Positions 1,214 through 7,082 of a stretch of 7,678 bases of DNA are shown here, piece by piece. The notes beneath the pieces were generated by a model that was not told the origin of the DNA, made no database searches, and saw only the letters and a list, made by a program, of their open reading frames with translations. How positions within the stretch are numbered: the stretch's first letter is position 1; each line of letters begins with the position of its first letter. Source of the stretch: Candidatus Fermentibacterota bacterium (GTDB lineage Bacteria > JAFGKV01). Location of the stretch: positions 1 through 7,678 of the forward strand of contig JAUXFG010000171.1 in the NCBI GenBank assembly GCA_030620115.1, written 5' to 3'. The translations under genes and the position numbers were made by a program.

Positions 1214-2278
1214 ATGCGCTCTGTTTTTGTTTTCCTACTTATCCTTGCCACTCCTGCTCTCTGCCTCGACCACATGCTGGCAGACATAACTGAATCGATT
1301 GAATCGCCTTTTGGGACGTACACACCGATCCCTGTCATTGTAGATCCTTCCGTAGAGCCATGGGAAATCGAGCCCGATCTTTCGAACGTGATCAACGTGG
1401 AAGACTTCATCTTGAGTGATAGAGAGAAGGAGCTGCTTGCCTCCAACTCATTTGTGATCGTACCCGGACAAGGGAAGGCGGAAGTATACGACTACTACAA
1501 CGAGAACAGAGACCGTGGGATCCCTTCGTTTGTGACATCTGACGCTCTCCTTCACACCTATCATGTACTATTCGACCATCTCCTGAAAACAGCTGAATTG
1601 GAGACCTTCTTCGAGACGTTGAAAACCATGAACAGCACCTTGGTCACGGCCGCCGAGGCGACATTGGCCCAGGCTTCTTCTCCTGCGGAGATCTCCTCTT
1701 CCACGAGACTTCTTGCCTTTCACTTAGTTGCCGCATCGCTACTCGATTCCACCTTTGTGCTGAATCCAGTTGTTGCTGACGTTGTTGCCGCGGAGCTATC
1801 TCTGATCCTGAACCATACTGGTCAAGACACATCTCCGACCTTCGGCTACTCAGAAGACTATACGCAGTACAAGGTACGAGGCCACTACACCGCCAACGAC
1901 ACTCTGGGATGCTATTTCAGGGCTATGATGTGGTATGGAAGGATGGCCTTCATTCTGGACGGGGGATTCGAGAATCAGCTTCTGGTTCGCGACCTCACAT
2001 TGACGGCTCTTCTTCTTGTAAGAGACACGGCGATCTATCCTATCACCCAAGATCAGTGGACCACCGTCTATTGGCCGACTGTCTTTTTTGTGGGCCGCTC
2101 TGACGACCTCATTCCAGAGATGTATCGCGACCTTGCGCTGCAGGTCTACGGACAGCCGATAGAGCAGCTCTCTGTCGCGGACTTGGCTGACTCCACGATG
2201 CTTGAGCTTTTTATCACACAAGCCGCGGGCCACATTCCCACAACCCCAAATTGGGGCCGGAGCACCGCAGGGTCTTAG
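1214..2278 (+). CDS. DUF3160 secreted protein, 5' part of frameshifted gene
   Basis: This is the N-terminal part of a secreted protein of the DUF3160 family, whose biochemical role is not known to me. Residues 1-17 (MRSVFVFLLILATPALC) form a signal peptide with a plausible signal peptidase I site after ALC; it is not a standard lipobox. The family signature FVTSDALLHTYHVLFD is at about 106-121. RGHYTANDTLGCYFRAMMWYGR is at about 222-243. From about residue 346 the reading loses family similarity (WGRSTAGS) and stops at TAG 2276-2278. The continuation (RFMGQRFIPDS) is found one frame over, from about 2253. Candidate slip sites are CCCC at 2244-2247 and GGGG at 2253-2256; removing one base from the G run joins the frames as PTTPN-W-AGAPQGLRFMG. 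The interruption may be an assembly error, a natural mutation, or less likely programmed frameshifting. Confidence 0.88.
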   Translation: MRSVFVFLLILATPALCLDHMLADITESIESPFGTYTPIPVIVDPSVEPWEIEPDLSNVINVEDFILSDREKELLASNSFVIVPGQGKAEVYDYYNENRDRGIPSFVTSDALLHTYHVLFDHLLKTAELETFFETLKTMNSTLVTAAEATLAQASSPAEISSSTRLLAFHLVAASLLDSTFVLNPVVADVVAAELSLILNHTGQDTSPTFGYSEDYTQYKVRGHYTANDTLGCYFRAMMWYGRMAFILDGGFENQLLVRDLTLTALLLVRDTAIYPITQDQWTTVYWPTVFFVGRSDDLIPEMYRDLALQVYGQPIEQLSVADLADSTMLELFITQAAGHIPTTPNWGRSTAGS

Positions 2279-3923
2279 GTTCATGGGGCAACGATTCATA
2301 CCGGATTCATACATACTGGACCAAGTAGTGTTTATGCACACAGACCGCTTAATGCCCAAAGGACTGGATGTGATGGCTGCGTTGGGGAGCGACAGAGCCC
2401 TCTGGATCCTCGACAACATCTACCATGAGTTCGGCGATCCGCTGTACGTGTCCCAGCTTGAGGCCATGCGGGAATATGTGGTCTCTTTGAGTGATTCGAC
2501 GTGGGCGGAGAATCTCTATTACAACTGGCTCTACTCGTTGATGCCGTTGCTTTTTGATAAGGACCAAGGCTGGCCGGTCTTCATGACAAACCCTGCGTGG
2601 TCAGACCGTGAGCTTTCCACGTCTTTGATGAGCTGGAGCGAGCTCCGTCATGATACGATCTTATATGCAAAACAGTCAGAAACTGAGATTGGAATCCCAC
2701 CAGGCGGCGCGTTGGTCCAGGGATATGTAGAACCGAACCCTTATCTTTGGGCAAGGCTTGCCGCCCTAGCTGAATACACTGGTGTCGGCCTTCAAGGATT
2801 GGATTTGATCTCTCCGATTGATTATGAGCGACTCCAGTTGCTTCGCTCACTCTGCCTCAATCTTCTGGAGATCTCCTTGATCGAACTCCAGGGAGAGCGG
2901 CTTTCGCCGGAACAAGACTCATTCATAGCACAGGTAGGTCTGGATCTGAGAATCATCGCTTCGATCGACTCAGACGTGCTTTCCCCGGAATCCCCTGACC
3001 CTGCAGACAGTGCCTGCACGGCTGTCGTTGCGGATGTACATACTGACCCAAACACCAGCACGTGCCTAGAAGAGGGGGTTGGATATCCGTGGAACATCCT
3101 CGTGGTCGTTCCTCGGGGAAACACCCTTCTGATCACGCGAGGTGCTTTTCTACCCTACTATGAGTTCGTGCTCCCTGTGGACGAACGCATGACCGACGAA
3201 GAATGGCGCCGATTTCTCACTGGAACCGAACCTCCGGCCCCTCCCGTGTGGACGTCGATCTTTCGAGACACGACGTCATCTCTTCAAAACCCTTCGCCGG
3301 AACCGTACCACTTCGGAAGCAGGGGAATATGCACCTTCTCATACATCCTCTCTCCCGATCCCCCTGATACCGGGATCACCGTGGATATCGAGGTCCTGTT
3401 CAGCACGCTCGATGGTTTGACCATAGCCGAACCATCGCTCACAATAGTAACGTCCTCATGCGACAGCATTCAGGTATCGCTCCAGCCCCTTGGCCAAGAG
3501 AGATTTCAAGGATCGTTCAATACCGAAGGTTGGGCGCCGGGCGAAACCATTTTCTGGTTCCGGGCCCAGACACCTGGAGGGCAGATACTCCTTGACTGGA
3601 GGACGGTTGTCCAAGTGGGTGGAGGAGCAGGTAGCTTCCCTTCGCCAGAGCCAATTGAGTTCAGGATTCTCGGGGTGAGACCCAACCCATTGGTGGATCA
3701 TGGGCTGATCTCGTTTAGTCTGCCCTCTGCCGGTAGGACGCGGCTATCACTCTGGGATCTGGCCGGAAGAGAACGAACCGTATTGCACGAAGGCTATCTG
3801 TCCGCGGGGTCATATTCTCTACCGTGGGTAGTTACTGAGGACTTGATTCCCCAGGGAACGTATATCTTGAGGCTGAGCTGGCATGGACAGTCGCGCAGTA
3901 GTCTGGCGGTTATTGCTCGATAG
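2202..3923 (+). CDS. DUF3160 secreted protein, 3' part with sorting domain
   Basis: This frame carries the rest of the DUF3160 protein. The ATG at 2202 lies in the overlap and is probably not a true start; homologous reading begins near 2253. Family motifs follow in the expected order: RFMGQRFIPDS, GLDVMAALGSDRALWIL, NWLYSLMPLL, PVFMTNPAWSDRELST, WSELRHDTILYAKQS, GYVEPNPYLWARLAALAEYT, ADVHTDPNTSTCLEEGVGYP and LTDEEWR-like MTDEEWRRFL. An Ig-like segment follows. The last 87 residues (nt 3660-3920: GVRPNPLVDHG, LSLWDLAGR, IPQGTYILRL) resemble the type A C-terminal sorting domain of type IX secretion, or the FlgD-Ig fold. The joined product would be about 900 residues, exported and probably cell-surface or secreted. 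No strong terminator is seen in the 66 nt before the convergent radical SAM gene. Confidence 0.88.
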   Translation: MSFLSHKPRATFPQPQIGAGAPQGLRFMGQRFIPDSYILDQVVFMHTDRLMPKGLDVMAALGSDRALWILDNIYHEFGDPLYVSQLEAMREYVVSLSDSTWAENLYYNWLYSLMPLLFDKDQGWPVFMTNPAWSDRELSTSLMSWSELRHDTILYAKQSETEIGIPPGGALVQGYVEPNPYLWARLAALAEYTGVGLQGLDLISPIDYERLQLLRSLCLNLLEISLIELQGERLSPEQDSFIAQVGLDLRIIASIDSDVLSPESPDPADSACTAVVADVHTDPNTSTCLEEGVGYPWNILVVVPRGNTLLITRGAFLPYYEFVLPVDERMTDEEWRRFLTGTEPPAPPVWTSIFRDTTSSLQNPSPEPYHFGSRGICTFSYILSPDPPDTGITVDIEVLFSTLDGLTIAEPSLTIVTSSCDSIQVSLQPLGQERFQGSFNTEGWAPGETIFWFRAQTPGGQILLDWRTVVQVGGGAGSFPSPEPIEFRILGVRPNPLVDHGLISFSLPSAGRTRLSLWDLAGRERTVLHEGYLSAGSYSLPWVVTEDLIPQGTYILRLSWHGQSRSSLAVIAR

Positions 3924-6018: not shown

Positions 6019-6151
6019 CGACCGAGGACCCCGGCTCTGTCAGGGTGTAGCCCGGCTCCCGTCTATGTATGACAACGCCGTGACAAGCCGCGTTGGCGAC
6101 CTGTCCCGGCGAAGCTCGAAGAGCGGAGACGGAAGGCCGCAGGCGTATCCC

Positions 6152-6173
6152 CTGTCCGCCAGCTGGCGGACAG
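6152..6173. repeat. Perfect 22-bp palindrome
   Basis: CTGTCCGCCAG is followed directly by its reverse complement CTGGCGGACAG, with no loop. It lies inside the 292-bp unit. There is no adjacent U run. Confidence 0.75.
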
Positions 6174-6226
6174 CAGGTGGTGCCAGATCAGTCGTTGCAG
6201 TAGGAGGTTGGTGAGAAGTTCGGGCT

Positions 6227-6251
6227 AATGCACATTCGGAATCAACGTCCC
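6227..6251. repeat. Dispersed repeat fragment (copy of 7560-7584)
   Basis: These 25 bases (core TTCGGAATCAACGTCCC) match 7560-7584 at 22 of 25 positions; all three differences are transitions. The left edge coincides with the right end of the 292-bp unit. Confidence 0.6.
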
Positions 6252-6276: not shown

Positions 6277-6708
6277 TCATCCAGCAAGAGGGTTTTCCCA
6301 TTTGAGCATGGGGAAGCGGGAGAAGTCCGAGTCGGTGGATTGCAGCACACAACCGTACTCAATAGCGAGAGCGGCTATATGGGCATCAGTCACAAGGTTC
6401 GCTGTTGCCTGACCGCCCATCAGCATTTCCCTGAAGATGTCCCAGTGACGTTGCGTGGGCACGACGACCCTGGTGCATGGCTGGGACAGCCAACCACCGA
6501 TGCGCTCGATGGCCTCGTCCAGTGAGAGTGGGCGCTGGAAAACACGTGTATTGGTGCCGATGCGAACAAAAGCGTTCATAACCGTCCAGCAGAGACAGAC
6601 TGGCGTCGAACCCGAGAGCTGCATATCCCACCATTCCCGTGCCCGCTCGTGACGTTGGCTGAGGCTATCCTCGGCGTAGAGGAGGATATTGGCATCGACG
6701 AGTATCAA
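6277..6708 (-). CDS. vapC: VapC-type PIN-domain toxin
   Basis: This 143-residue protein is a PIN-domain ribonuclease and the toxin half of a type II toxin-antitoxin pair; such toxins cleave RNA, often tRNA or rRNA, when freed from their antitoxin. Acidic metal-binding residues are visible: Asp5 in VDAN, Asp108 in LVTDAH, and Asp126/Asp128 in STDSDFSRFP. The WTVMNAFVRIGTN stretch and the end LKWENPLAG match the subfamily first described in mycobacteria, where the usual mid-protein Glu is not obvious. The length is normal. The start is TTG (6708-6706), whose last two bases overlap the antitoxin's TGA stop (6707-6705), with GAGG 7 nt before it; this suggests translational coupling to the antitoxin. 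There is no downstream gene; a repeat begins about 25 nt after the stop. The toxin looks intact. Its RNA target cannot be inferred. Confidence 0.92.
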   Translation of the reverse strand: MILVDANILLYAEDSLSQRHERAREWWDMQLSGSTPVCLCWTVMNAFVRIGTNTRVFQRPLSLDEAIERIGGWLSQPCTRVVVPTQRHWDIFREMLMGGQATANLVTDAHIAALAIEYGCVLQSTDSDFSRFPMLKWENPLAG

Positions 6709-6950
6709 CGGAAATCCTCATCCTCCGCCTGAGCGAGTAGTTCCTGGATGTTATCAAGATTGTATCCTGCTCGGAGACCCATGGGATGAGGGTCCATACG
6801 GTATGGACGGTGAGACGCGGACTTGTCGATCTCCTCCAGTCCCACACGCAGAGCTTCATTCACCACATGACGGAAAGATGTGTGCAGCTTGGCTGCTGCG
6901 GCACGCGCTCGATCGAGGACGTCCTCATCAATTGTGAGTGTTGTTCTCAT
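6705..6950 (-). CDS. vapB: VapB-type ribbon-helix-helix antitoxin
   Basis: This 81-residue protein is the antitoxin partner of the PIN toxin. Residues 1-42 (MRTTLTIDEDVLDRARAAAA, then KLHTSFRHVVNEALRVGLEE) form a ribbon-helix-helix domain: a beta strand for operator contact and two helices for dimerisation. The tail from about residue 45 (PYRMDPHPMGLRAGYNLDNI, then QELLAQAEDEDFR) has the Pro/Gly-rich then acidic-helix shape typical of antitoxin tails that occlude the toxin active site. An ATG at 6971 would add seven residues, but it lies between the -35 and -10 boxes of the promoter, so the ATG at 6950 is the real start. No ribosome binding site precedes it, which fits a leaderless mRNA. It overlaps the toxin gene at its 3' end. 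Antitoxin and toxin together normally repress this promoter. Confidence 0.9.
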   Translation of the reverse strand: MRTTLTIDEDVLDRARAAAAKLHTSFRHVVNEALRVGLEEIDKSASHRPYRMDPHPMGLRAGYNLDNIQELLAQAEDEDFR

Positions 6951-6956
6951 GGTCGC

Positions 6957-6984
6957 ATTATAGCATCCCATTAGGTGATGTCAA
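6957..6984 (-). promoter_or_regulatory. Consensus promoter of the vapBC operon
   Basis: On the minus strand, TTGACA (6984-6979) and TATAAT (6962-6957) are both exact sigma-70 consensus boxes, separated by 16 nt. Only six bases separate the -10 box from the vapB ATG (6950), so the expected start site falls at or next to the A of the start codon. Confidence 0.85.
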
Positions 6985-6990
6985 GACATC
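6977..6990. promoter_or_regulatory. Inverted-repeat operator over the vapBC -35 box
   Basis: GATGTCAAGACATC is a perfect inverted repeat (6-bp arms, AA centre) that contains the whole -35 box. An additional ATCAC follows on the right and GTG precedes on the left, so flanking symmetry is partly retained. Ribbon-helix-helix antitoxins typically bind such short palindromes, so VapB(C) binding here would block RNA polymerase. Confidence 0.65.
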
Positions 6991-7050
6991 ATCACTTCCT
7001 GTGAACGTAAAACTGAGTGATAGCCATATCGAACCCTTCTCTAATATCCC

Positions 7051-7082
7051 TTCCCCTTTTGAGAAGGGGATTGAGGGGATTT
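7051..7082 (+). repeat. C/G-tract hairpin repeat, copy 2
   Basis: CCCCTT-ttgag-AAGGGG, then ATTGAGGGGATTT, has the same plan and orientation as 1069-1101. Again the C tract can pair with either of two G tracts. It lies upstream of the vapBC promoter and is not transcribed by it. Confidence 0.6.

What the first reader, a model, noticed from the sequence alone, without database searches (positions are those of the whole stretch)
6950..6990. Exact-consensus, operator-embedded, probably leaderless toxin-antitoxin promoter
TTGACA, 16 nt, TATAAT are perfect on both boxes. A perfect 14-bp inverted repeat contains the -35 box, and the antitoxin ATG lies six bases after the -10 box, leaving no room for a ribosome binding site. 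The antitoxin mRNA would begin at or next to its AUG, while the toxin uses a TTG start with GAGG and a coupled stop/start. Leaderless antitoxin with coupled toxin would tie the toxin:antitoxin ratio to leaderless translation efficiency.
Basis: partly seen in the sequence, partly recalled or inferred. Interest (0 to 1): 0.6.

Follow-up and report, generated by a model that had tools for sequence, protein, structure and literature searches.

The report
Conserved leaderless VapBC antitoxin promoter
A bacterial toxin-antitoxin pair has its promoter, its own repressor's binding site and the antitoxin's start codon packed so tightly that the antitoxin messenger RNA should begin at its AUG, and this layout is kept in relatives from about ten bacterial phyla; it resembles what has been measured in the tuberculosis bacterium, so it is a well-supported extension of a known design, not a new one.

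Summary
On the minus strand TTGACA (6984-6979), 16 nt and TATAAT (6962-6957) are exact, an inverted repeat (7-bp arms, 6991-6976) covers the -35 box, and the vapB ATG (6950) lies 6 nt after the -10 box with no ribosome-binding site. The leaderless reading is strongly supported by comparison. A second copy in the same genome and almost all of about 40 homologues, titled to about ten phyla, keep TGATGcCTTGACATCA ... GATGCTATGATG-NNNN-ATG. Sequence upstream is random and the bases before the start are largely free, but the -10-to-ATG distance is fixed and the base before ATG is C or T (32/33), as expected if transcription starts on the A of AUG. The rival upstream start (6971) exists only in this genome's two copies. 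Homologues with a Shine-Dalgarno site never have the close promoter (0/13). Only 1 of 317 large ORFs sampled in this genome shows such a layout. The exact TATAAT is not the conserved feature; most relatives have TGcTATGAT inside a second operator-like repeat. Leaderless toxin-antitoxin operons are known from M. tuberculosis (32 of 37 pairs), so this is a new member of a known kind. The claimed effect on toxin:antitoxin ratio is untested.

The parts
6976..6991 (-). Operator copy 1: inverted repeat TGATGTC-TT-GACATCA spanning the -35 box
   Evidence: conserved as TGATGcCTTGACATCA in homologues, conservation ends sharply at its upstream edge
6979..6984 (-). -35 box TTGACA
   Evidence: invariant except one base in one of 33 aligned homologues
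6956..6967 (-). Operator-like copy 2 GATGCTATAATG (GATGCTATGATG in most homologues), spanning the extended -10
   Evidence: column composition; resemblance to copy 1 (TGATGcyWTGAyR) seen by eye
6957..6962 (-). -10 box TATAAT, preceded by TG (extended -10, 6965-6964)
6950..6950 (-). Predicted transcription start = A of the vapB AUG
   Evidence: standard spacing (6 nt after the -10 hexamer) plus pyrimidine at -1 in 32/33 homologues; inferred, not mapped
6705..6950 (-). vapB antitoxin, 81 aa, starts MRTTLTIDEDVLD
   Evidence: PF09957 VapB_antitoxin, E 4.7e-5; paralogue 89% identical; 40 homologues
6716..6719 (-). GAGG, likely ribosome-binding site of vapC inside the vapB 3' end
   Evidence: SD-like motif there in 34 of 39 homologues
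6277..6708 (-). vapC toxin, PIN-domain ribonuclease, 143 aa, TTG start overlapping the vapB TGA
   Evidence: PF01850 E 5.7e-11; TIGR00028 Mtu_PIN_fam E 3.4e-37; VapC43 7vwo E 3.7e-22; NTGA overlap in 39/39 homologues

Best explanation
This is the autoregulated promoter of a type II vapBC operon whose antitoxin mRNA is leaderless. A near-ideal sigma70 promoter (consensus -35, 16-bp spacer, extended -10) lies inside two copies of the VapB/VapBC operator, so repressor binding covers the whole promoter. Transcription starts on the A of the vapB AUG. VapB is therefore translated without a Shine-Dalgarno site, from a 5'-terminal AUG. VapC is made from a weak TTG/GTG start that overlaps the vapB stop and has its own GAGG inside vapB, so its synthesis follows VapB translation. 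Shown by sequence and comparison: the architecture, its conservation, the fixed spacing and the absence of an SD. Inferred: the exact start site, repressor binding, coupling, and any effect on the toxin:antitoxin ratio.
For: Fixed -10-to-ATG distance of 6 nt in 33 homologues aligned without gaps (window and paralogue included), with the sequence between mostly free and the sequence upstream of -42 random. Pyrimidine at -1 in 32/33, split evenly C/T, against about 50% at large ORFs of this genome. In-frame stops at -12 to -42 in every close homologue. Conserved out-of-frame ATGs at -8 and -16 that would hinder a leadered mRNA. Among 102 non-redundant VapB genes, 62 have the close promoter and 89 have no SD; none of the 13 SD-led ones has the close promoter, Fisher p 1.3e-6. 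L038 keeps the promoter but has its ATG 35 nt downstream, and has GGAG before it. The operator-promoter pattern occurs 7 times in 395 genomes, 6 of them directly before a vapB. VapC start overlap in 39/39. Measured precedent: 32 of 37 M. tuberculosis toxin-antitoxin pairs with a primary start site are leaderless (PMC3898074).
Against: No transcript data. The homologues are related and the operon may spread between lineages, so counts are not independent. The fixed spacing could be held by the repressor's contacts with DNA next to the start codon and not by the start site. The window copy itself has a more structured 5' end than the family average (z -0.48; mean family z +0.84). A start site 1-3 nt upstream cannot be excluded.
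Confidence: 0.87

Rival explanations
1. VapB starts at the in-frame ATG at 6971 (MGCYNATMRTT...), and the mRNA has a leader from a promoter further upstream.
For: An in-frame ATG at 6971 is present in the window and in the paralogue.
Against: It is absent in all other close homologues, whose frame is closed by stops at -12 to -42; it has no SD; it would lie inside the spacer of the consensus promoter; nothing upstream of -42 is conserved.
Confidence: 0.03
2. The promoter is real but transcription starts 2-5 nt before the AUG, giving a very short non-SD leader and not a strictly leaderless mRNA.
For: Start-site choice can vary by one or two bases; a subfamily has 18-nt spacers and 7 nt to the ATG (L019, L023, L032, L033).
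Against: Standard -10-to-start distance puts +1 exactly on the A, and the base at -1 is a pyrimidine in 32/33 while -2 is unconstrained.
Confidence: 0.1
3. The mRNA is leaderless, but only because the repressor's operator geometry fixes the promoter against the start codon; leaderless translation has no regulatory role of its own. (This rivals the last step of the reader's model, not the leaderless start itself.)
For: Both promoter boxes are embedded in operator-like repeats; a compact, transferable operon may simply do without a leader.
Against: The bases nearest the ATG are not conserved as a binding site would be, but -1 is; codon 2 is AGA in 29/39 against 32 of 336 arginine codons elsewhere in the genes, hinting at selection on the 5' end of the mRNA.
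Confidence: 0.5

Closest known systems
Leaderless toxin-antitoxin operons of Mycobacterium tuberculosis (Cortes et al. 2013, PMC3898074)
   Same: Toxin-antitoxin pairs with transcription starting at the first start codon; 32 of 37 pairs with a primary start site were leaderless. The VapC here belongs to the same TIGR00028 subfamily.
   Different: M. tuberculosis expresses about a quarter of its genes leaderless; here the sampled ORFs of the host show no general sign of that, and the same base-exact layout recurs in many other phyla. Start site here is inferred, not mapped.
VapBC family with TIGR00028 (Mtu_PIN_fam) VapC, e.g. VapC43
   Same: VapC matches TIGR00028 and aligns end to end with M. 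tuberculosis VapC43 (7vwo); VapB matches PF09957.
   Different: VapB scores only just above the Pfam cut-off and has no NCBIfam or credible PDB relative.
Known leaderless repressor genes: lambda cI, Tn1721 tetR (cited in PMC3293720)
   Same: An autoregulatory DNA-binding protein translated from a 5'-terminal AUG in bacteria that mainly use SD sites.
   Different: Not toxin-antitoxin; no coupled toxin gene.

Membership tests
Type II VapBC toxin-antitoxin | PIN-domain toxin | tested here: met
   PF01850 E 5.7e-11; TIGR00028 E 3.4e-37
Type II VapBC toxin-antitoxin | Small antitoxin gene with DNA-binding N-terminus directly upstream of, and overlapping, the toxin gene | tested here: met
   PF09957 E 4.7e-5; TTGA overlap, 39/39 homologues overlap
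Type II VapBC toxin-antitoxin | Inverted-repeat operator overlapping the promoter | tested here: met
   Repeat 6991-6976 spans the -35 box, conserved across homologues; binding itself not tested
Type II VapBC toxin-antitoxin | Toxin is a growth-inhibiting ribonuclease neutralised by VapB | not testable with these tools
   needs expression and RNase assay
Leaderless mRNA | No SD before the start codon | tested here: met
Leaderless mRNA | -10 element about 10 bp before the start codon | tested here: met
   TATAAT ends 6 nt before ATG; conserved; criterion as in PMC3160421
Leaderless mRNA | Mapped 5' end at the start codon | not testable with these tools
   no RNA data for this genome

The most novel reading that the evidence does not exclude
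Leaderless initiation is a selected, regulatory property of this antitoxin family in phyla that otherwise rely mainly on SD sites: it makes antitoxin synthesis respond to the state of the translation machinery (70S ribosomes, initiator tRNA, initiation factors) differently from the SD-initiated, coupled toxin, and makes the module portable between hosts.
Probability: 0.3. Interest if true: 0.7.

Novelty: new member of a known kind. Interest (0 to 1): 0.45.

Why it matters
Leaderless toxin-antitoxin operons have been described as part of the unusually leaderless transcriptome of mycobacteria. The same base-exact layout in vapBC of Desulfobacterota, Verrucomicrobiota, Spirochaetota, Omnitrophota and others suggests that the leaderless antitoxin travels with the module, not with the host. 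It gives a natural series (leaderless and SD-led relatives of one antitoxin family) for testing why antitoxins would be made without a ribosome-binding site.

Tried and rejected
Longer vapB start at 6971: rejected, not conserved. Phage or plasmid origin: no relatives in viral contigs, phages or plasmids, and the promoter pattern is absent from viral contigs; no match in E. coli. Use of this promoter by other genes: 7 pattern hits in 395 genomes, 6 before vapB; the seventh (two mismatches) has no vapB after it and looks like chance. A host-wide leaderless habit: not seen, SD motifs 31% against 13% background and close promoters at 1 of 317 ORFs; starts there were chosen mechanically, so this is a rough baseline. 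Defence-system models: none. Profile search of solved structures with VapB gave only de novo designs and unrelated or uncharacterised chains, uninformative. Structure prediction was not run: it would not bear on the promoter question.

Full report
What is there. On the minus strand the window reads TGATGTCTTGACATCACCTAATGGGATGCTATAATGCGACC-ATGAGAACAACACTC. TTGACA is at 6984-6979, TATAAT at 6962-6957, 16 nt apart; six bases separate TATAAT from the ATG at 6950. The inverted repeat TGATGTC-TT-GACATCA (6991-6976) has two perfect 7-bp arms and contains the -35 box. A TG in the extended -10 position is also present. The ORF is an 81-aa VapB (PF09957), followed by a 143-aa PIN-domain VapC (PF01850, TIGR00028) whose TTG start overlaps the vapB TGA; GAGG lies 7 nt before it. 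The closest solved structure is M. tuberculosis VapC43, 7vwo.

Is it more than chance? In the 4.1-Mb genome only five exact TTGACA-N15-19-TATAAT sites exist (control one); two are this promoter and that of a second vapBC copy, 89% identical in VapB, on another contig. In about 540 kb of the same genome, 1 of 317 ORFs of at least 150 codons has a promoter with 9 or more of 12 matches ending 5-7 nt before its ATG, while SD-like motifs are at 31% against 13% background. So this layout is exceptional for the host, which otherwise shows an SD signal.

Comparison with homologues. A search of 84,980 species genomes by protein, blind to the upstream DNA, gave 40 relatives, mostly 52-70% identical, from records titled to ten groups of phylum rank; the groups are interleaved on the VapB tree, which is compatible with transfer but, as the tool warns, no proof of it. 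Including the window and its paralogue, 33 of 39 upstream regions align without gaps to the ATG. From -41 to -26 they read TGATGcCTTGACATCA, from -17 to -6 GATGCTATGATG, both nearly invariant. Upstream of -42 there is no clear conservation. Between -5 and -2 bases vary. At -1 the base is C in 16, T in 16 and A in one. This is the mark expected if position +1 of the transcript is the A of the AUG: fixed distance to the -10 box, largely free sequence between, and a pyrimidine-purine initiator.

The longer start. The ATG at 6971 (position -21) exists only in the window and its paralogue. In every close homologue an in-frame stop closes the frame at -12 to -42, and none of the others has an upstream in-frame ATG (L038 has an upstream TTG). 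ATGs at -8 and -16 that belong to the -10 region are out of frame; in a mRNA starting further upstream they would precede the true start.

Wider family. Scans of the phyla of a Desulfobacterales, a Verrucomicrobiales and a gammaproteobacterial carrier added more distant VapB genes with MRTT or MKTT N-termini. In 57 of these the -10-like hexamer count peaks at 6 and 7 nt before the start (16 and 11, against a typical count of about 2 elsewhere, with smaller side peaks at 9, 10 and 12), TTGACA-like boxes cluster 28-33 nt before it, and -1 is a pyrimidine in 51 of 57. Over 102 non-redundant genes, 62 have the close promoter; 13 have an SD-like site, and none of these 13 has the close promoter (Fisher p 1.3e-6; related sequences, so the p-value is only a guide). 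Shuffled upstream sequences have a close promoter in 1.1%. L038 is a natural experiment: same promoter, ATG 35 nt downstream, and a GGAG before it. In the gammaproteobacterial sample the more distant VapB genes are mostly SD-led, so the layout is a property of part of the family and not of all VapB.

The exact TATAAT is not the conserved state: most relatives have TATGAT, and only the window, its paralogue, L007, L112 and L113 have TATAAT at this position. The conserved element looks like a second, imperfect copy of the operator (TGATGC-TA-TGATG) laid over the extended -10. In the L019/L023/L032/L033 group the second site is close to a palindrome, for example TGATGACTTAGCATCA. So both boxes are operator-embedded, not only the -35.

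Further features. Codon 2 is AGA in 29 of 39 close homologues, while AGA makes up 32 of 336 arginine codons in the rest of these genes; the first 48 nt fold less stably than synonymous recodings in 33 of 39 (mean z +0.84), as would help a 5'-terminal AUG, but the window copy is an exception (z -0.48). VapC starts overlap the vapB stop in all 39 (TTG 21, GTG 15, ATG 3), 34 with an SD-like motif: a conserved weak, coupled toxin start.

How it most likely works. Strong promoter, repressed by VapB/VapBC bound across it; mRNA starting at the vapB AUG; VapB translated from a 5'-terminal AUG; VapC translated by coupling from a weak start. The layout is shown; the start site, binding, coupling and the effect on the ratio are inferred.

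Known context. Cortes et al. (PMC3898074) mapped start sites in M. tuberculosis: 32 of 37 toxin-antitoxin pairs with a primary start were leaderless. Zheng et al. (PMC3160421) found leaderless genes widespread but a minority in most bacteria outside Actinobacteria and Deinococcus-Thermus. Full-text searches of the open library turned up no paper describing leaderless antitoxins as a conserved property of vapBC in other phyla; that library lacks most subscription journals. The finding is therefore a new member of a known kind, with an unusually clear comparative case.

Noticed in passing
window 6020-6229 (+): Dispersed repeat of about 210 bp next to vapC, with about 50 partial matches elsewhere in the genome (73-94% identity), mosaic in structure and holding a 22-bp palindromic stretch; one match lies upstream of the paralogous vapBC as well.
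   Followed up: partly
window 1214-2278 and 2202-3923 (+): One DUF3160 protein (PF11369) appears split over two overlapping frames: profile positions 2-271 in the first ORF and 291-632 in the second, suggesting a frameshift or an assembly error.
   Followed up: no
L019, L035, L042, L034 (vapC region): In several homologues the vapC reading frame ends early (20 to 63 codons) although the start overlap is intact, suggesting decayed toxins or assembly errors.
   Followed up: no
L036:1501; also L067, L082, L128: A few homologues with a similar promoter layout start with GTG, which would be a leaderless GTG start.
   Followed up: no
window 7034-7068: Imperfect inverted repeat CCCTTCTC...GAGAAGGG upstream of the vapB promoter.
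   Followed up: no
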